From Gemmatimonadaceae bacterium (GTDB taxonomy: Bacteria; Gemmatimonadota; Gemmatimonadetes; Gemmatimonadales; Gemmatimonadaceae): a DNA stretch of 10,946 nt. Below the pieces are notes generated by a model. The model saw only the letters and a list, made by a program, of their open reading frames with translations. It had not been told where the DNA came from and did no database searches. The position numbers and the translations under genes were made by a program. Location of the stretch: NCBI GenBank assembly GCA_013813605.1, contig JACCRL010000157.1:1-10946 (forward strand), in the 5' to 3' direction. Positions 483 to 10,946 of this stretch are shown one piece after another. Positions within the stretch are counted from its first letter, which is position 1. Each line of letters begins with the position of its first letter.

Positions 483-833
483 ATGCCGAAACCACCCGCC
501 GGCTATACCCTCGTCGAAGTAATAGTCGCACTCTTCGTTTTCTCCGTGGGTGCACTCGCCCTCGCCGCAACGAGCGCCGTCATCGCGCGCGAGATGACCA
601 CGAATTCTCTCCGTGAGCGTTCAGCGCTCGCGGCTTCGAACCGGCTCGAGATCCTGCGCTCGCAATGTGTCGCGACGAGCGGCGAAGAGACGCGGCGTGG
701 TGTGACATCGGCATGGTCGGCAGCCCCTGCTTCAGCGAACGGCCTGTCAGTCGAGGCCACCACGACGCGGTCGTCGGCATCCGGCGGCGAGAAAACAGAT
801 ACCTACCGGGCGACGATCGGCTGCACACGGTGA
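483..833 (+). CDS. pilV: PilV-like minor prepilin (type IV pilus)
   Basis: This 116-residue protein starts with a short positive leader and the class III signal G7|YTLVE. Prepilin peptidase would cleave after Gly7, leaving a mature N-terminal Tyr and the conserved Glu at +5 (E12). A hydrophobic helix follows at about residues 8-32, then the amphipathic helix expected of pilins (AREMTTNSLRERSALAASNRLEILR) and a short globular tail with cysteines near residues 61 and 114. The protein would sit in the inner membrane before assembly and act in the minor-pilin priming complex. It is shorter than typical proteobacterial PilV. The gene has no visible Shine-Dalgarno sequence and is probably translated from a leaderless transcript. 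Its TGA overlaps the next start codon by 4 nt, indicating coupled translation. A GspI/PulI-like pseudopilin is the alternative, but the pilMNOPQ context favours T4P. Confidence 0.8.
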   Translation: MPKPPAGYTLVEVIVALFVFSVGALALAATSAVIAREMTTNSLRERSALAASNRLEILRSQCVATSGEETRRGVTSAWSAAPASANGLSVEATTTRSSASGGEKTDTYRATIGCTR

Positions 834-1741
834 AATGGCGCCATGGATTCACCTTGATCGAAACTATCGCTGTTCTCGTGCTGCTCATGCTCGTCGCCGG
901 CACGGTCGGCGTCACGCTCGTCCGACAGCAGCAGTTCTACCGCGGAGCAGGCGAGCTGATTCAGGCGCGCCAGGAAGTCCGCGATGCGTCGGAGCTCATG
1001 TCCGCCGATCTGCGCGCGATCTCGCTCGAGGACACGGTGCGGGTGATGGCCGACAGCGCGGTCGAGTTCTATTCCACCATTGCAGCTTCCGTCCTTTGCG
1101 CTGCGCTCGGAGATTTCGAGATCGGACTTCCTGCCACGGGGGGACCCCGCGGCAATACTCTTACCTCCTTTGCGACGGAGCCCGACACCGGCGACCTCGC
1201 GCTCGTCTTCCGCGACACAGCGGATTCGCTGACGGGAAGCCGTTGGGACCGGTACCGCATTGCTTCCTTCTCGATGCGCGCTGACGGCGCTGCCTGTCCC
1301 GCCGCCAGTCCATTCGCGGTCCCCGTCCCCGGCGCCTTTTCTCTTGCTCTGCGCACGCCACTCCGCGCGGAGCCGCGTGCGGGCACTCCGATACGGTTTC
1401 TGCGCCGGTCGCGCTACAGTCTCTACCGGTCGTCTGACGGTCTGTGGTATCTGGGTTACCGCAGATGTGGCGCGGTAGCGGGCGCGGCCTGCGGCGCAAT
1501 TCAGCCGCTGAGCGGGCCATATCGTCCCTACTCCAGTGATCCCGCCGCAACGGGAATACTCTTCCAGTATTTCAACAGCTCCGGCTCGCCGCTCTCGCTG
1601 GGCAATTCGTCGGCGAGCCTCGCTCGCGTTTCCGTTACGGCCCGTGCTCTCAGTGCACAGCGGCTGCGGAGCGGCAATGCTGTTCGGACCTTCGGTGATT
1701 CTTCCTTCGTGACCGTCAGCATCCGGAACCGCACGCCGTGA
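830..1741 (+). CDS. pilW: PilW-like minor prepilin (type IV pilus)
   Basis: The protein is read from GTG at 830, which overlaps the preceding stop as GTGA. This start gives MKWRHG6|FTLIE, a textbook prepilin peptidase site with mature Phe and Glu at +5 (E11). The frame is open further upstream, but any earlier start would bury the signal behind about 55 residues of pilV antiphase sequence, so 830 is preferred. The 303-residue product has a hydrophobic helix at about 7-31, an amphipathic helix (VRQQQFYRGAGELIQARQEVRDASELMSADL, with the usual heptad character) and a large globular domain with several cysteines. Size and N-terminal pattern match the PilW/PulJ class of minor pilins, which help nucleate pilus assembly. 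It sits between PilV-like and PilX-like genes, the usual order. The GspJ family is the alternative name. Confidence 0.8.
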   Translation: MKWRHGFTLIETIAVLVLLMLVAGTVGVTLVRQQQFYRGAGELIQARQEVRDASELMSADLRAISLEDTVRVMADSAVEFYSTIAASVLCAALGDFEIGLPATGGPRGNTLTSFATEPDTGDLALVFRDTADSLTGSRWDRYRIASFSMRADGAACPAASPFAVPVPGAFSLALRTPLRAEPRAGTPIRFLRRSRYSLYRSSDGLWYLGYRRCGAVAGAACGAIQPLSGPYRPYSSDPAATGILFQYFNSSGSPLSLGNSSASLARVSVTARALSAQRLRSGNAVRTFGDSSFVTVSIRNRTP

Positions 1742-2190
1742 CGAAACGGGAATCGCGCGGCCAGCCGTTTCACCAGCGTGGCTTCGCCCTCGCCGCAGCG
1801 CTCCTTGCCGTTGTGCTCATCGGCGCGCTGGTCGCTGGTGTCTTCTTCGCGACCACCGAGGAAACCGCAATCGGTTCCGCCTTCCGCTCGCGCCAGCTCG
1901 CGCTCGGCGGCGCCGAGTCAGCGCTCGAGAGCGTTCTTGCTGGAGGGGTTACGCCTGCCGTTGACTCTATCGCGACGGGGGAAACCACCATCCTCGTAAC
2001 GGGTAACGCCACCGTCCGCATCACGCGACTCGACTCGCTCCTTTACTGGGTGGTCGCCGAAAGCGAATTCGGCATTGATGCAACGAAGTCGAGACGCCGC
2101 ATCGGCATTGCCCTGACGATCGCTCGCGACTCGTCGGGCGTCCGGCAGGTGGCGAGGATTCCCGGACAGGCCTGGGTAGAGCTGTACTGA
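1738..2190 (+). CDS. pilX: PilX-like minor pilin assembly protein
   Basis: This 150-residue product starts at GTG 1738 and overlaps the pilW stop by 4 nt (GTGA). The N-terminus has a 14-residue basic leader, then RG15|FALAAALLAVVLIGALV and a single transmembrane helix at about 17-38, followed by TTEETAIGSAFRSRQLALGGAESALE. The helix and the downstream acidic/Ala-rich amphipathic segment (QLALGGAESALE) are the hallmark of the PilX N-terminal family. Position +5 of the predicted mature protein is Ala20 rather than Glu. That departure is known from PilX/GspK-type subunits, which are thought to sit at the filament tip and need no charge neutralisation. No terminator follows the gene. Confidence 0.75.
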   Translation: MTKRESRGQPFHQRGFALAAALLAVVLIGALVAGVFFATTEETAIGSAFRSRQLALGGAESALESVLAGGVTPAVDSIATGETTILVTGNATVRITRLDSLLYWVVAESEFGIDATKSRRRIGIALTIARDSSGVRQVARIPGQAWVELY

Positions 2191-4836: not shown

Positions 4837-5297
4837 AAAAGCTCACACTCGGGGCAGCGCTTCTCGCCCTCGCGATATCCGGAACAGCGGCGGCGCAGGC
4901 GCGTCCCGCCGGGCCAGCGCCAAGGACGGCTTCTGCGCCGGCAACTGGCGATACGGCTCGCAAGGTCCTCATGGCGCGGGAAGTATTCGCCTATGAGGGC
5001 GGTGGCAGGAGAGACCCATTTCTCTCCCTGCTCACCTCGGCCGAGTTGCGGCCGATGCTCATCGACCTGAAGCTGGTTGCGATAGCCTACGACCCTTCCG
5101 GAAGAAATTCTGTTGCCGTTTTGCGTGATCTCACGTCTAAGCAACAGTACAAGGTCAGAGTTGGTCAGGCCTTGGGCAGGATGCGGGTCGCAGCGATCCG
5201 CGAAAAGGCAGTTGTTTTCACGATCGAAGAGTTCGGATACAGTCGGCAGGAAATGCTGTCGATGACCGATTCGACCAAGACGAGGCCCCCTCAATGA
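4833..5297 (+). CDS. pilP: Type IV pilus protein PilP
   Basis: PilP bridges the PilN/PilO inner-membrane complex to the N0 region of the secretin PilQ. The 154-residue product has a signal peptide (MKKLTLGAALLALAISGTAAAQA, cleavage expected after AAA), a Pro/Ala-rich linker at about 22-45, and the conserved FAYEGGGRRDPFLSL segment (about 53-67). A small beta domain ends in YKVRVGQALGRMRVAAIREKAVVFTIEE. Unlike well-studied PilP proteins, which are lipoproteins, it has no lipobox and no cysteine at all. It is therefore predicted to be periplasmic and soluble, held only by partners, unless the signal is left uncleaved as an anchor. The gene overlaps pilO and pilQ by 4 nt each (ATGA), so translation is coupled. 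Confidence 0.9.
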   Translation: MKKLTLGAALLALAISGTAAAQARPAGPAPRTASAPATGDTARKVLMAREVFAYEGGGRRDPFLSLLTSAELRPMLIDLKLVAIAYDPSGRNSVAVLRDLTSKQQYKVRVGQALGRMRVAAIREKAVVFTIEEFGYSRQEMLSMTDSTKTRPPQ

Positions 5298-7291
5298 CCA
5301 TTCTAAAAGCGCTGGCCGCTTCGGCGCTCCTGTTCCTGCCCTCACCGGCCGCCAACGTTCATTCTCTCAGCGTCGTCCCCATGGCGGGGAAGGCTGAAGT
5401 GGTGATCGGAGTAGACGCAGCCGTCTCCGTGCAGGACTTCACGCTCGACGCACCCGCCCGGGTGGTCCTCGACCTGAAGGGCGCAACGCTCGACATGGCC
5501 GGCCGTACCTATGACCGGATCGAGCGCGGCGGAATTACCAACGTCCGCTATTCACAGTTCAAGCCAAACGTCGTTCGCGTCGTAATCGAGCTGAACGATC
5601 TCCGTGCATATGAAGTCCGCCGTAACGAAGGCGAAGTCCGCGTGCTGGTCGCAGGTGCCGTCGATGGCTTTGCCGCCTGGCACTCGTCGCGCAGCGGCGA
5701 CGTCGCCGTTTCGTCGCCGGTTCCGTCTGTCAGCCGCCCCGCAGCAACCGCGCGCGTTGACGCCGCTCCGGCCCGTCCGGTACCGGCAGCCGCCGAACCC
5801 GAGCAAGTGATCGAGGAGCCGGCTGAGCCCGCACCGCTGGTTTCGACTGCGAAACTCGCGCTCGGTCCCGCACAACAGTCGCAGCAGCCGCCCATCACCG
5901 TGACTTTTCAGGACACGGACATCCGCGACGTCATCGCGTCCTTTGCGAGCTTCGCCGGACGCACCATTGTCGTCGGCAAGGACGTGAGCGGAACGGTCAC
6001 CGCCGAGATCCGCAATCAGCCGTGGGATGTCGCCCTGAGGGCGATCCTCCAGGGCCAGGGCCTCGCCGCGTCCGAAGATGCAGTCTCCGGGATCATCACG
6101 GTCGACAGCTATCGCAACATCCAGAATCGCCAGGCGTCGGAGCCGCTCGTCACGCAGCTCGTCTCGATCAACTACGCGAACGCCGGCTCGCTCGTCCCGA
6201 CCATCAGGTCGCTCCTGCTCAAGGATTGCGGCCAGGGTGGCAGCGTCGAGACCAGTCCCAACGTACAGAACAACGCTGCCCAGAACTGCGTCGCCCGCGG
6301 CGTTGTCGCGGCGGACAGCACCACTAACACGCTCATCATTACGGAGACGGCTTCACGCCTCGCCGACGTCCTTGGCTACGTGCGCAACCTCGACGTTCGC
6401 ACGCCGCAGGTCGGCATCAAGGCGAAGATCATCTTCGTCAACAGAACCAACATCGAAGATATCGGCCTCTCGTACGACCTCGGTACCGGCTCGGATCAGT
6501 TCTTCAGCCAGCTCGTGAAGCGCTCCGATCCGACATCGCTTGTCCCGGTCGACACCAACGGCGACGGCGTTCCTGACGCGCTCGGCGGCGGCACCCCGTT
6601 CCAGGGAGATCGCGTGCTGCTCGGCGGCAACGCTCTCTCGGCGATCGCCAACGCGAACGCCCGCGTCACCAACCCCGCGCTCAGCGTCGTCTTCTCGACG
6701 GCGCTCGGCAAGTTCCAGCTGACGAGCTTCCTCGATGCATTGCAGGAAGTGCGTCTCGCCGACCTCCAGGCGGAGCCGAGCATCGTCACGCTCGACAACC
6801 GCCAGGCCTCGATTCACGTCGGACAGGAAATTCCGATTCGCGTGCTCGATGCGAGCTCGCAGAATACACAGCCCGGTGCAAATCCGAATCAGCAGCCGCG
6901 TGCGACTGTCCAGCTCAAGGAAGTCGGCATCATCCTGACTGTCACGCCGCACATCACGAACAACCGGCAGATTCTCCTCAAGCTGCACGCCGAGAACTCT
7001 GATGCGCAGCTCGCGTCGTCGGACGTCGGCTTCATCTTCGGCAAGCAGGCCGGCGACACCCAGTTGCTCGTCGGCGACGGTGAGACCGCCGTCATCGGCG
7101 GTCTCACGGTTACCCAGGCTTCGACTTCGAAGTCCGGAATTCCAATCCTCGTGGACCTGCCGATCATCGGCCGGCTCTTCGGTCAGACCCGTACCTCCGA
7201 CGAGAAGCGCGACCTGCTGATCCTCGTCACGCCGCACATCATCGACGACGGCTCGTCTCCCGACGCACCGATTCGCCCGGCCACCCGCTAA
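5294..7291 (+). CDS. pilQ: Type IV pilus secretin PilQ
   Basis: PilQ forms the outer-membrane gate through which the pilus passes. The 665-residue protein has a signal peptide (about 1-20) and one AMIN peptidoglycan-binding domain (about 23-117, VHSLSVVP...FTLDAPARVVLDL...YSQFKPNVVRVVIEL). A Pro/Ala-rich linker (about 130-195) precedes the N0/STN domain (about 201-270, ITVTFQDTDIRDVIASFASF) and an N1 domain (from about 288, QLVSINYANAGSLVPTIRSLL, ending VLGYVRNLDVRTPQV). The C-terminal secretin beta-barrel carries the family signatures VGIILTVTPHIT and GIPILVDLPIIGRLF (615-629), ending LLILVTPHIID. Oddities are a Gly/Asn-rich insertion in N1 with the only two cysteines (C312, C332) and a DTNGDGVPD loop (420-428). 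The start overlaps the pilP stop as ATGA. Confidence 0.96.
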   Translation: MTILKALAASALLFLPSPAANVHSLSVVPMAGKAEVVIGVDAAVSVQDFTLDAPARVVLDLKGATLDMAGRTYDRIERGGITNVRYSQFKPNVVRVVIELNDLRAYEVRRNEGEVRVLVAGAVDGFAAWHSSRSGDVAVSSPVPSVSRPAATARVDAAPARPVPAAAEPEQVIEEPAEPAPLVSTAKLALGPAQQSQQPPITVTFQDTDIRDVIASFASFAGRTIVVGKDVSGTVTAEIRNQPWDVALRAILQGQGLAASEDAVSGIITVDSYRNIQNRQASEPLVTQLVSINYANAGSLVPTIRSLLLKDCGQGGSVETSPNVQNNAAQNCVARGVVAADSTTNTLIITETASRLADVLGYVRNLDVRTPQVGIKAKIIFVNRTNIEDIGLSYDLGTGSDQFFSQLVKRSDPTSLVPVDTNGDGVPDALGGGTPFQGDRVLLGGNALSAIANANARVTNPALSVVFSTALGKFQLTSFLDALQEVRLADLQAEPSIVTLDNRQASIHVGQEIPIRVLDASSQNTQPGANPNQQPRATVQLKEVGIILTVTPHITNNRQILLKLHAENSDAQLASSDVGFIFGKQAGDTQLLVGDGETAVIGGLTVTQASTSKSGIPILVDLPIIGRLFGQTRTSDEKRDLLILVTPHIIDDGSSPDAPIRPATR

Positions 7292-7303: not shown

Positions 7304-9691
7304 ATGACCATAAATTTTGTTAACGCCATTCGTCGGGGCGGTGCGTACGCCCTGATTTCAGGTGTGCTCGCGCTCGGCGTTGCCGCCTGTGATGCGACAT
7401 CGACGGACACGAACCGTGATGCCGCTGCGCCGACGATCGACGTCAGCAGAGTGCAGGCGGCGAACGATACCACCGTTGCGTTCAACGTTGACGTAAAGGA
7501 CAACCTCGGCATCAAGTCCGTGCACGTCGAAACGCTGGGTGGAGTAAGTACTGTTTTTGATACGACGTTCACTACTGCCGTCACGAACATTCAGATTCCC
7601 TTCGCCCTCTCGGCGTCGCGGTCCGTGCCCCCGGGTACTCCGGTGCTCGTGGTCGCTTCGGCCGTGGACGGAGCCGGTAACGTGTCGCGTGTGGACACGC
7701 TCAGGCTGACGGTCGGCTTCATTCTGCCGCCGGTAATAAGAGTGACGAGCCCGGCTTCGGGAACCGTCGCCGTAGTCGGCAAGTCGATTGTGATCTCGAT
7801 CAGCGGCAAGAGCGGCCTCAAGGTGCGCGCCCTTGGCTACAACGCCACCGGTGCGGTCACTACCGCCGATTCGACCGCCTTCAACTCGCCGTTAGCTGAC
7901 TCGGTGTCGATCCAGGATACCATTGCAATCCCTGCCAACGCGGCGCCCGGCCCACTGACGATCACGCCGTTCCTCAGGGATTCACTCGGAGTCCGTACCA
8001 CCGGCACTCCGATAACGCTCACGGTCCAGACCGTCGCCTCCTCTAATACGGTGCCGGTGGTCAACGCATACTGCCTCAACATTCCTTCGGCGAACTCGTG
8101 CGGCCACAGCGCCCGCATGGAGGTATCCGATACGGTTCACGTCGAAGCAACCGACCAGACGGGCATCACCGTCCTCGGATACGAAGTAAGAGGTACGCCC
8201 GGTGGGCCGATCCAGGCCTCGGGCCAGGCAACATCAAGCGGCCAGGTCACGTCCGCGATCCGGACGTTCACCACCAGCCTGCCCTACACGAACTTCCCGA
8301 CTACAGTCTACCTGCAGACGTTCGCGATCAACTCAAACGGCACCAAGGCTTATTCGAAGCTGGCCAGCGGAGCTGACCGCGTCGATACCGTCACGATCGT
8401 GGCCGGTGTGACCCGCGCGCTGCCGCTTGGTGGAGAGGTCGCTGATGCGCTCTATCACTCGCGCTTCGACCGGATCTATCTCTCCAACATCGCGCGCAAC
8501 CGCGTTGAGGTCTTCAACCTCGCCGATTCCTCGTTCAAGGCGCCGGTAATCGTTGGGTCGCGTCCATGGGGACTTTCCGCATGGCCGCGCGACCGCAACG
8601 GAACGATGGGTGACACGATCCTCGTCGCCAATTCCGGCGGCACCAACATCAGCTACATCAACCTGAATGGCGGTGGCAGCGGCACGGAAGTATTCCGCTA
8701 CGACCTGCCGAACATCATCGCCTTTTCGATCACCACCACGAGGTCGGCGGCCGGCGTCCTCATTCAGCAGCGCACGAAGTTCGACTTCTCGGACAGGCCA
8801 CAGTACCTGGCCGCGACCTGTAAATCCGCGGGCGGGGCCTGCTCGGAAGTAGTTCTCGCCTATTCAACGACTCCGACCCCCGGCCAATCAATACCGTTTA
8901 CGGAGAACAACGGAACGCTGCGCTGGGAAAATCTGACCACACGCCAGTCGCACTTCTTCTTCGAACAGGCGGTTGGGCAGGGCGCCGACCGGGCGGACAC
9001 GCTCGAAGTCATCAGGTACGACGCCAACGACAATACCGCGACGATTCTCCTTCCCTTCAAGGATCCGCAGAACCGTTCGACGGTCGTTACTGTCCCGCGG
9101 CTTGCCTTTCGAGACACGACGTTCGTGCGCAATTCCGGAAACTTCCGCCGCGCCGTATTTGGCGAAGGCGGCCGTGTGATGGGAAGCAGGGCGCTGTCGT
9201 TCGATGTGGACAGAGGCCTGGACCCGTCATACCCGTATTTCGATCTTGGCGTGTCGGGTTCTCAGGACGTGACCGACTTCATCGCCAACAGCTTCGCGCA
9301 GGTCAAGGGAGTGGCAATCAACTTCGACGGTTCGCTGTCGGCCATTCGCGCTGATTCGACATATGTGCTGAATCCGGCCCTCCGGCTTCAGGGTGTAATC
9401 GGAACGACCGCGGCGAACGCCGGAATCGACTTCCACCCGCTCAACACGGGCCCCAACTCGTTCCCGCTCAACACACGGCTGTCGTTTGCCGCGTCGTCGG
9501 AGCCGCTGATCGAGATCTTCGATACGCGCTGCTACCAGAGAGTTGCTACCATCCCGATTCGTGATCCGGTCATCGGACCGATCAAGGCAGCATTTCGCCA
9601 GGCGACAGGGCAGCTGGTGCTCGTCGCGGCGACCGGACGAGGGGTTGTCATCGCACAGCTTCCGAATACGTTTACGACGACCTGCCCGTAG
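7304..9691 (+). CDS. Large Ig-like/beta-propeller lipoprotein of unknown function, pil-operon linked
   Basis: I do not recognise this 795-residue protein as a named family. Residues 1-28 form a lipoprotein signal (basic n-region IRRGG, hydrophobic core, lipobox LGVAAC with Cys29, and Asp at +2). Residues about 40-139, 140-245 and 246-369 look like three Ig-like beta-sandwich domains, each with Thr/Asp/Val-rich strands, a turn such as DNLGIKSVHV or DQTGITVLGYEV, and a closing strand DTLRLTV, PITLTVQ or DTVTIV. From about 371 the character changes to a beta-propeller (ALYHSRFDRIYLSNIARNRV, VIVGSRPWGLSAWP, VKGVAINFDGSLSAIRADS). Six further cysteines occur at 257, 266, 506, 513, 743 and 794. AGGTGA (7293-7298) is a good Shine-Dalgarno. 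The start lies 12 nt after pilQ with no terminator between, so co-transcription is likely. An envelope-exposed T4P accessory or adhesin-like role is inference. Confidence 0.85.
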   Translation: MTINFVNAIRRGGAYALISGVLALGVAACDATSTDTNRDAAAPTIDVSRVQAANDTTVAFNVDVKDNLGIKSVHVETLGGVSTVFDTTFTTAVTNIQIPFALSASRSVPPGTPVLVVASAVDGAGNVSRVDTLRLTVGFILPPVIRVTSPASGTVAVVGKSIVISISGKSGLKVRALGYNATGAVTTADSTAFNSPLADSVSIQDTIAIPANAAPGPLTITPFLRDSLGVRTTGTPITLTVQTVASSNTVPVVNAYCLNIPSANSCGHSARMEVSDTVHVEATDQTGITVLGYEVRGTPGGPIQASGQATSSGQVTSAIRTFTTSLPYTNFPTTVYLQTFAINSNGTKAYSKLASGADRVDTVTIVAGVTRALPLGGEVADALYHSRFDRIYLSNIARNRVEVFNLADSSFKAPVIVGSRPWGLSAWPRDRNGTMGDTILVANSGGTNISYINLNGGGSGTEVFRYDLPNIIAFSITTTRSAAGVLIQQRTKFDFSDRPQYLAATCKSAGGACSEVVLAYSTTPTPGQSIPFTENNGTLRWENLTTRQSHFFFEQAVGQGADRADTLEVIRYDANDNTATILLPFKDPQNRSTVVTVPRLAFRDTTFVRNSGNFRRAVFGEGGRVMGSRALSFDVDRGLDPSYPYFDLGVSGSQDVTDFIANSFAQVKGVAINFDGSLSAIRADSTYVLNPALRLQGVIGTTAANAGIDFHPLNTGPNSFPLNTRLSFAASSEPLIEIFDTRCYQRVATIPIRDPVIGPIKAAFRQATGQLVLVAATGRGVVIAQLPNTFTTTCP

Positions 9692-9720
9692 CTCCACAGG
9701 CGTCGCGATGGAGTAATGAG

Positions 9721-9756
9721 AACGAGCCCGGTCAAAAGCCGGGCTCGTTCGTTTTT
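9721..9756 (+). terminator. Intrinsic terminator after the pil-lipoprotein operon
   Basis: An 11-bp perfect stem (AACGAGCCCGG, 9721-9731, with 9739-9749) closes a 7-base loop TCAAAAG and is followed by CG and TTTTT (9752-9756). It ends the transcript running from pilM through the lipoprotein gene. The T-tract stops immediately before GGAG at 9757-9760, the ribosome-binding site of aroC, so the hairpin also lies in the region that would carry the aroC promoter or leader. Confidence 0.9.
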
Positions 9757-9764
9757 GGAGATTA

Positions 9765-10946
9765 ATGCTGCGATTCACAACCGCCGGAGAGTCTCACGGG
9801 CCGGCGCTGATCTCGATCCTCGAGGGAATGGTTGCCGGGCTCCCGCTCCTCGCCGCCGACGTCAACGTCGAGCTGGCGCGCCGTCAGCAGGGATATGGCC
9901 GCGGCCGCCGCATGAAGATCGAGTCGGACGAGGCCGAGATTCTCTCCGGAGTCCGCGCCGGTGAAACGCTCGGCTCCCCAATCGCCCTGCTCATCCGGAA
10001 TCTGGATTGGAGGAACTGGGTTGAAATCATGGATCCGGCGCCGCGTGAGGGTGACCCGGCGCGCAAGCGCGCCGTCACCAGGCCGAGGCCCGGCCACGCC
10101 GATCTCTCCGGAATGCTCAAGTACGGCCGAGACGATGCCCGCGACATTCTCGAGCGCGCGTCGGCACGGGAGACGACCGCGCGCGTTGCCGCCGGCGCGA
10201 TCTGCAGGAAGCTGCTGCGCGAATTCGGCATCTCACTCGGCAGTCATGTCGTAAGTCTTGGCGGGATTGATGCGCAGCGTCCCGACACCATGCCGACAGA
10301 CCTGAACGCTGCCGCCGACCCGTCGCCTCTACGCACTCTGGACAACTCCGCCCAAGCGCGGATGATCGAGCGCATCGACGCTGCCAAGGCCGAGGGAAAC
10401 ACGCTCGGTGGAATCGCCGAGGTGGTGTGCGATGGTGTTCCGGTTGGGCTCGGCTCGCATGTCTCGTGGGATCGCAAGCTCGATGGCCGCCTCGCGGCGG
10501 CGCTGATGTCGATTCCCGCCGTCAAGGGAGTTGAGATCGGTCTCGGCTTCGAGGTCGCGCGGCGCCCCGGCTCCGAAGCTCACGACGAGATCGACGCGGC
10601 GGAGGGGAATGCGCGCACGGGTCGAGTGCGGCGGCGCACCAATCGCGCCGGTGGCCTCGAGGGTGGTATGACCACCGGCGAGCAGATCGTGCTGCGCGTG
10701 GCGATGAAACCGATCAGCACCCTGATGCGTCCCCTCGGCACGGTGGAGATGAAAACGCGCGAGCCCGCGCAGGCCGTCGCGGAAAGAAGTGATGTCACCG
10801 CGGTGCCAGCGATGGGAGTAATCGCCGAGGCAATGGCAGCGTTCGTCGTCGCCGATGCGATGCTCGAGAAGTTCGGCGGCGATTCGCTCGCGGAGCTCAA
10901 ACGGAACTACGAAGGGTATATCACTTCACTGGGTGCACGACACGGA
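9765..10946 (+). CDS. aroC: Chorismate synthase, 3' end outside the window
   Basis: Chorismate synthase (EC 4.2.3.5) converts 5-enolpyruvylshikimate 3-phosphate to chorismate using reduced FMN, the last step of the shikimate pathway, in the cytoplasm. The frame is open from ATG 9765 to the last base (394 codons, no stop), close to full family length. Signatures are all present: GESHG at 8-12 with the invariant His11, RPGHAD with the second invariant His111, the RETTARVAAG segment (R135-E136-T137), GGLEGGMTTGE, and ERSDVTAVPAMGVIAE with the catalytic-region Asp343. The N-terminus LRFTTAGESHGPALISILEGMVAGLPL is of the longer bacterial class. GGAG at 9757-9760 sets the start, 4 nt before the ATG. 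It follows an intrinsic terminator directly, so its transcription source is unclear. Confidence 0.95.
   Translation, partial: MLRFTTAGESHGPALISILEGMVAGLPLLAADVNVELARRQQGYGRGRRMKIESDEAEILSGVRAGETLGSPIALLIRNLDWRNWVEIMDPAPREGDPARKRAVTRPRPGHADLSGMLKYGRDDARDILERASARETTARVAAGAICRKLLREFGISLGSHVVSLGGIDAQRPDTMPTDLNAAADPSPLRTLDNSAQARMIERIDAAKAEGNTLGGIAEVVCDGVPVGLGSHVSWDRKLDGRLAAALMSIPAVKGVEIGLGFEVARRPGSEAHDEIDAAEGNARTGRVRRRTNRAGGLEGGMTTGEQIVLRVAMKPISTLMRPLGTVEMKTREPAQAVAERSDVTAVPAMGVIAEAMAAFVVADAMLEKFGGDSLAELKRNYEGYITSLGARHG

What the first reader, a model, noticed from the sequence alone, without database searches (positions are those of the whole stretch)
7304..9691. Undescribed Ig/propeller lipoprotein embedded in the pilMNOPQ transcript
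Seen: the gene starts 12 nt after pilQ with a good Shine-Dalgarno, no intervening terminator, and one intrinsic terminator after it. The product has a lipobox (Cys29), three Ig-like segments and a predicted beta-propeller, and resembles no classical Pil protein. Known: secretins often need a lipoprotein pilotin or accessory, and some T4P carry beta-propeller tip adhesins (PilY1), but those are not lipoproteins encoded after pilQ. Inference: this may be a lineage-specific outer-membrane T4P accessory, such as a PilQ partner, a surface adhesin, or a dock for the retracted pilus tip.
Basis: partly seen in the sequence, partly recalled or inferred. Interest (0 to 1): 0.7.

Follow-up and report, generated by a model that had tools for sequence, protein, structure and literature searches.

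The report
Ig-propeller lipoprotein paired with PilQ secretin
A gene read straight after the pilus-pore gene in many soil bacteria of the phylum Gemmatimonadota encodes a lipid-anchored stalk with a propeller head, which looks like an undescribed outer-membrane partner of that pore, perhaps a cap on its outer mouth.

Summary
ORF 7304-9691 (795 aa) starts 12 nt after pilQ with AGGTGA upstream, has a lipobox (Cys29), and is followed by a strong terminator (9720-9750) and aroC.

The refuting result was mostly not seen. In 98 of 101 loci chosen for carrying the gene it directly follows pilQ; the other three start at a contig end. Of 135 genomes with the gene, 134 have pilQ. It is present or absent as a unit: 33 of 40 pilQ loci from genomes without it read pilQ-aroC. 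Four unlinked relatives exist.

Its divergence tracks PilQ (partial correlation 0.50), like the known pairs PilP-PilQ (0.51) and PilN-PilO (0.57), most strongly at PilQ's apical, probably extracellular loop (0.58); PilP tracks N0, its known site. In two families that loop is longer where the gene is present; in others not. Independent contrasts are few and some controls noisy.

Best reading: an outer-membrane accessory lipoprotein docked on PilQ's outer mouth, comparable in position to the unidentified Thermus crown. Contact and function are inferred. The main rival is a co-transcribed surface adhesin.

The parts
7304..9691 (+). lipoprotein gene (LP), 795 aa
7293..7298 (+). AGGTGA, Shine-Dalgarno-like, 5 nt before the ATG
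   Evidence: read from sequence
7304..7390 (+). predicted lipoprotein signal peptide with lipobox VAAC (Cys29)
7391..8398 (+). Ig-like stalk (about three domains; Big_7-like in relatives)
   Evidence: domain limits approximate, no structure
8399..9688 (+). YVTN/lactonase-type beta-propeller region
   Evidence: (1l0q, E 2.1e-17)
9720..9750 (+). intrinsic terminator-like stem with T-run, between LP and aroC
5294..7291 (+). pilQ, secretin (AMIN, N0, N1, secretin)
   Evidence: below the TIGR02515 cut-off, above the Pfam Secretin cut-off
6494..6658 (+). PilQ apical (beta-lip) loop, residues 401-455, whose divergence tracks LP most strongly
   Evidence: topology inferred from PMC10550240 and PMC8563730 passages
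6551..6577 (+). DTNGDGVPD, calcium-loop-like motif (resemblance recalled) inside that loop
2393..5297 (+). pilM, pilN, pilO, pilP-like genes upstream in the same run
   Evidence: PilM, PilN, PilO by Pfam; PilP by position and size only
9765..10946 (+). aroC (chorismate synthase), runs off the window

Best explanation
LP is an accessory lipoprotein of the type IV pilus secretin. It is made from the end of the pilMNOPQ transcript, lipidated at Cys29 and anchored in the outer membrane. Its Ig stalk carries a beta-propeller head that sits at the outer mouth of PilQ, touching PilQ's apical loop, where it would steady or gate the pore or guide the pilus. Shown: the gene, lipobox, family, synteny, domain similarity and co-divergence with PilQ. 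Inferred: co-transcription, outer-membrane sorting, surface exposure, contact with PilQ, and any effect on pilus passage.
For: LP follows pilQ directly on the same strand in 98 of 101 loci chosen for an LP hit; the 3 others begin within 26 nt of a contig end. pilQ stop to LP start: median 19 nt, 86 of 89 measured within 60 nt. 134 of 135 LP genomes also have a pilQ hit, the exception being a contig break. LP changes state at least 7 times on a PilM+AroC tree of 109 loci. A divergent second pil operon in G012 also has an LP relative after its pilQ (L193). Mirror-tree over 80 loci, AroC partialled out: LP-PilQ 0.504 (5-95% 0.42-0.59), LP-PilP 0.26, LP-PilO 0.27, LP-PilN 0.23, LP-PilM 0.00; known pairs PilP-PilQ 0.507, PilN-PilO 0.571. 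By PilQ region, LP peaks at the apical loop 401-455 (0.582) and PilP at N0 (0.511), PilP's site by NMR in Neisseria (PMC3441751, abstract and passages). In f1 and f2 the loop is 45-58 residues in 79 of 83 LP+ loci and 23-33 in 25 of 25 LP- loci. The stalk varies (Cys to the VGSRPWG-type anchor: median 384, up to 1032 and 1068 residues) while the head stays near 400, which suits an outward-facing stalk.
Against: The loop association fails in f4 and f5 (LP- loci with the motif: L164, L175, L180, L183) and for some divergent f1 LPs (L126, L132, L133, L135, and L195, L196, L200, L205). On the tree only 2-3 independent contrasts exist in f1+f2; over all families the motif goes the same way in 1.6, the opposite way in 0.2 and does not differ in 4.2 of 6 pairs, not significant. 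Among the 64 long-loop loci LP and PilP track the loop equally (0.43 each), and in f2 the LP peak is not at the loop. PilM-AMIN scores 0.465 although PilM is expected in the cytoplasm, so false signals reach that level. PilO-PilQ (0.48) is nearly as high as LP-PilQ. Four unlinked LP relatives exist. No structure or co-fold was possible.
Confidence: 0.42

Rival explanations
1. LP is a surface adhesin or ligand-binding lipoprotein co-expressed with the pilus but not bound to PilQ. Correlated change of LP and of PilQ's outer loop would then reflect shared surface exposure (phages, environment), not contact.
For: Ig stalk plus YVTN propeller resembles a surface-layer protein (1l0q); variable stalk length; LP absent beside pilQ in many loci; unlinked relatives.
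Against: Near-constant place after pilQ and co-divergence with PilQ as strong as the PilP-PilQ pair, 0.499 still after partialling out AroC, PilM, PilN and PilO. The first part of the propeller, not the stalk, is the most conserved stretch, which a fast-evolving adhesin head would not predict.
Confidence: 0.28
2. LP is the local counterpart of PilY1: a propeller that binds the pilus tip or docks the retracted tip at the pore.
For: A C-terminal propeller, and minor-pilin-like genes at 483-2190 in the same run (one of three above its Pfam cut-off); PF05567 was found in only 1 of 298 genomes of the phylum.
Against: No sequence link to PilY1: PF05567 does not match LP and none of the 10 PDB hits is named PilY1. 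LP is a predicted lipoprotein; PilY1 is not (recalled). The PF05567 control rang in none of 14 genomes, so absence of PilY1 is not shown; PMC13190605 (passages) places Gemmatimonadota homologues in its PilY1.3 clade.
Confidence: 0.1
3. LP is a pilotin that escorts PilQ to the outer membrane.
For: Predicted lipoprotein encoded beside the secretin gene.
Against: 33 of 40 pilQ loci from genomes without an LP hit read pilQ-aroC, so PilQ assembly does not generally need it. Its profile matches are Ig and propeller, not the small helical or TPR folds of known pilotins (recalled).
Confidence: 0.06
4. LP has nothing to do with pili; its place is kept by operon inertia.
For: aroC keeps the same place without a pilus role.
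Against: 134 of 135 LP genomes carry pilQ, and LP tracks PilQ after AroC is partialled out.
Confidence: 0.1

Closest known systems
Crown of the Thermus thermophilus PilQ complex (PMC5745081)
   Same: A non-PilQ component capping the secretin outside the outer membrane, disturbed by mutating two PilQ residues near the membrane surface (abstract and passages).
   Different: The crown protein was unidentified in that paper; no sequence to compare, so only position and idea are shared.
PilY1/PilC tip protein (PF05567)
   Same: C-terminal beta-propeller in a type IV pilus locus.
   Different: LP is a YVTN-type propeller on an Ig stalk, a predicted lipoprotein, after pilQ; no sequence relation detected.
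YVTN/lactonase propellers (1l0q; PF10282)
   Same: Profile match over 4 repeats of 1l0q; PF10282 in 2 of 37 relatives; one relative is named YncE family by NCBI.
   Different: LP adds a lipobox, an Ig stalk and a fixed place in the pil operon.
Secretin pilotins (PilF/PilW/Tgl, GspS)
   Same: Outer-membrane lipoprotein partner of a secretin (recalled).
   Different: Different fold and size; missing beside pilQ in many loci.
Top gate or cap gate of Vibrio-type GspD (PMC10550240, PMC10329019; passages)
   Same: An optional apical element above the secretin pore.
   Different: That is an insertion in the secretin itself; LP is a separate gene, though PilQ's apical loop also varies with it in f1 and f2.

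Membership tests
Bacterial lipoprotein | signal peptide with lipobox cysteine | tested here: met
   Cys29 invariant in 23 and 37 aligned sequences; strict pattern in 79 of 101 open frames; with a relaxed pattern 3 gave no cysteine (L070, L087, L105) and 2 were mis-assigned by the script (L111, L116)
Outer-membrane lipoprotein | sorting to the outer membrane | not testable with these tools
   +2 residue varies (D19 G18 S17 N10 of 79); sorting rules of this phylum unknown to me
YVTN-type beta-propeller | repeated YVTN-like blades | tested here: met
   four stretches of 1l0q; sequence only, blade number not determined
Bacterial Ig domain (Big_7) | Big_7 profile match | tested here: inconclusive
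   15 of 37 aligned relatives match; the window protein itself does not
PilY1 | PF05567 domain | tested here: not met
PilY1 | found at the pilus tip with minor pilins | not testable with these tools
Secretin pilotin | required for secretin assembly | tested here: inconclusive
   absent beside pilQ in 33 of 40 loci from LP-less genomes, but need for it where present is untested
[quoted passage not shown]
   indirect only: co-divergence with the apical loop

The most novel reading that the evidence does not exclude
LP is a phylum-specific secretin crown: a ring of lipid-anchored Ig-propeller proteins standing on PilQ's outer mouth and clasping a calcium-loop-like insert there. It would have grown from an older Ig-type lipoprotein like those that still follow pilQ in outgroup lineages, and it would be a sequence-identified example of the extracellular caps seen without assignment on type IV pilus machines.
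Probability: 0.28. Interest if true: 0.82.

Novelty: new variant of a known kind. Interest (0 to 1): 0.6.

Why it matters
Non-PilQ material capping a type IV pilus secretin outside the outer membrane was seen in Thermus and left unidentified (PMC5745081), and unidentified extracellular densities are marked on the Myxococcus machine (PMC7545093). A pilQ-linked, naturally present-or-absent lipoprotein with a predicted contact loop gives a candidate class for such caps and a testable partner of PilQ in an abundant, little-cultured soil phylum.

Tried and rejected
Pilotin and PilY1 membership: considered and rejected as filings. Minor-pilin co-variation: PilX-like scores differ between LP+ and LP- loci, but the profile was built from LP+ loci and PF14341, found in 122 of 298 genomes, gave no clear split by eye, so it was dropped. 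PilT is in 148 of 148 genomes of the family and says nothing. PF05567 searches cannot show absence because the control rang in none of 14 genomes. In the rows listed by paper searches (9 to 20 rows each, of up to 496 papers) I saw no paper on this gene; only open-licence PMC papers are held. Passages were read in PMC13190605, PMC10581226, PMC5542475, PMC7545093, PMC5745081, PMC3441751, PMC8563730, PMC10329019 and PMC10550240; a term search in PMC13039148 found nothing. No paper was read whole.

Rows dropped: seven of the 40 loci from LP-less genomes were left out of the LP+/LP- contrasts because a plain aroC does not follow pilQ there (L147 contig end; L163 a prepilin-like frame, then contig end; L151 topA-like; L153 unclear; L160, L176, L179 Ig-type lipoproteins). 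The mirror-tree used 80 of 101 loci, those with all seven genes at over 75% of median length. The stalk measure used 85 of 101: nine failed the anchor pattern and seven were set aside; its shortest value (L072, 243) looks mis-anchored and L124 is cut after the anchor. The 101 loci were chosen because they have an LP hit, so they show linkage, not frequency; the 40 and the 20 later regions were also picked by me, not drawn at random.

Full report
What is there. The window reads minor-pilin-like genes, pilM, pilN, pilO, a pilP-like gene, pilQ, LP, a terminator and aroC, all on the plus strand. LP (7304-9691) begins 12 nt after pilQ with AGGTGA upstream. The window lies in a fragmented 2.1-Mb assembly (80% complete). 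Named relatives are metagenome assemblies, four of five called Gemmatimonadaceae.

What the protein is. Alone it hits no curated model above cut-off. A 37-member alignment from six family codes (A2; other members 25-62% identical to the window) matches the YVTN surface-layer propeller 1l0q at E 2.1e-17 in four stretches, and bacterial Ig and Fn3-like modules more weakly. Big_7 is found in 15 of 37 members and a lactonase propeller in 2. So: lipobox, Ig-like stalk, YVTN-type propeller. The stalk reaches nearly three times its median length in some relatives while the head stays near 400 residues; the first part of the propeller is the most conserved stretch.

Where it occurs. With profile A2, 135 of 298 genomes of the phylum match at E<=1e-10. 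A TIGR02515 pilQ hit is in 273 of 298 (none over that model's curated cut-off, so some may be other secretins). Of the 135, 134 are among the 273; the exception, G060, has LP 81 nt from a contig start. In 101 loci with an LP hit (the window plus 100 fetched), pilQ is directly upstream on the same strand in 98, and the other three start within 26 nt of a contig end. aroC follows on the same strand in 96, with six gaps over 800 nt; the other five lie within 760 nt of a contig end. In a further 20 regions, 16 have a pilQ with an LP-profile hit after it (some weak, L187 only 16 bits) and 4 hold unlinked LP relatives with no hit to the pil or aroC profiles (L186, L188, L190, L192).

Where it is missing. 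In 40 pilQ regions from genomes without an LP hit, 33 read pilQ then aroC with no LP-like hit between, 30 of them with less than 200 nt between frames and the other three up to 579 nt. Three have another Ig-type lipoprotein after pilQ (L160, L176, L179), one a topA-like gene (L151), one a prepilin-like frame (L163), one is unclear (L153) and one ends at a contig edge (L147). Four more loci (L209-L212) also read pilQ-aroC. On a PilM+AroC tree of 109 loci (82 LP+, 27 LP-) the state changes at least 7 times. LP is thus a discrete unit gained or lost between pilQ and aroC; the count cannot tell gain from loss.

Outgroups and fission. In family f11, outside the window's class, pilQ is followed by an Ig-type lipoprotein in L179 (Big_1, E 6.6e-29) and by similar-looking frames in L207 and L213 (not Pfam-tested); L208 is unclear. 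L176 (f8) has Big_1 at 1.7e-21. In f9, L160 and L206 carry short Ig-like lipoprotein frames that hit the LP profile weakly (50 and 93 bits), L206 being cut by the contig end, while L197 and L204 have full LPs. Homology of the Big_1 proteins to LP is not shown, only the same place and a similar plan. In G212 and G239 the lipoprotein after pilQ is too short for a stalk plus propeller (L189 with weak Ig-type matches, L191 with none), and in G211 it is cut by a contig end; in all three an Ig-propeller relative lies elsewhere, which looks like a split of stalk and head. G276, however, has a full LP at pilQ and an unlinked copy as well. G012 has a second, divergent pil operon whose pilQ is followed by an LP relative (L193, 124 bits).

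Does it go with PilQ? Pairwise divergences of seven genes in 80 loci, AroC partialled out, give LP-PilQ 0.504, against 0.26, 0.27, 0.23 and 0.00 for PilP, PilO, PilN and PilM; LP-PilQ exceeded LP-PilP in 99.7% of 300 resamplings. Known partners score alike: PilN-PilO 0.571, PilP-PilQ 0.507; but PilO-PilQ reaches 0.48 and PilM-PilQ 0.41. By region, PilP peaks at PilQ N0 (0.511), its NMR-mapped site (PMC3441751), and LP at the loop 401-455 (0.582). In f1 alone the LP windows at 400-464 reach 0.75 and 0.71, in f2 only 0.28-0.35; within 64 long-loop loci LP and PilP tie at 0.43; PilM-AMIN at 0.465 shows the level of false signal. With AroC, PilM, PilN, PilO and PilP all partialled out, LP-loop is 0.617.

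The loop. It lies after the first strand of the secretin domain. In T2SS secretins the stretch from a conserved [QN]W to a following motif is the apical region that bears the optional top gate (PMC10550240, passages), and a beta-lip of 36 to about 80 residues lies at the extracellular edge (PMC8563730, passages). That the window's loop is extracellular is inferred by its place in the alignment to solved PilQ. In f1 the loop has 45-48 residues in 56 of 60 LP+ loci and 23-31 in 10 of 10 LP- loci; in f2 48-58 in 23 of 23 LP+ and 29-33 in 15 of 15 LP-. A calcium-loop-like motif is in 72 of 83 LP+ and 1 of 25 LP- loci of these two families. In f5 it is in 7 of 9 LP+ and 3 of 5 LP-, so the rule does not hold there. 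Over 129 loci the motif agrees with LP in 108, and 0 of 10000 within-family shuffles reach that, but shuffles ignore relatedness: only two or three independent contrasts lie in f1+f2. It is a lead, not a test passed.

Reading. The linkage to the pilus is firm; a physical partnership with PilQ is likely; a place at the outer mouth is the best single guess. A Thermus precedent exists for a non-PilQ crown there (PMC5745081, abstract and passages). Function beyond that (gating, steadying, guiding, adhesion) is open.

Noticed in passing
window 483-2190: Three minor-pilin-like genes stand before pilM in the same direction: one with a methylation motif above the Pfam cut-off, one just below it, one weak PilX_N.
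   Followed up: partly
L193 (G012): A second, strongly divergent pilMNOPQ-like operon with its own Ig-propeller-like lipoprotein after pilQ.
   Followed up: partly
L160:8706-9185: A 160-aa Ig-like lipoprotein frame after pilQ matches Pfam PilN (PF05137) at 2.9e-6, above cut-off; perhaps chance, unexplained.
   Followed up: no
L151, L153, L160, L176: Where aroC is not next, a topoisomerase I-like frame (topA, recognised by eye) stands 0.3 to 1.9 kb downstream of pilQ.
   Followed up: no
L163 (G280): A prepilin-like frame (GFTLIELLIVV...) follows pilQ before the contig ends.
   Followed up: no
L186, L188 (G211, G212), L190 (G239): Unlinked Ig-propeller lipoproteins whose mature end begins C-x-x-D-T-L-Y, in genomes whose pilQ-site lipoprotein lacks a propeller or is cut.
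   Followed up: partly
L043, L123, L148: Split open frames (pilO and aroC, LP, pilN), likely assembly or sequencing frameshifts; left as they are.
   Followed up: no
L185 (G289): The only PF05567 (PilY1) hit among 298 genomes, covering 59 of 411 positions.
   Followed up: no
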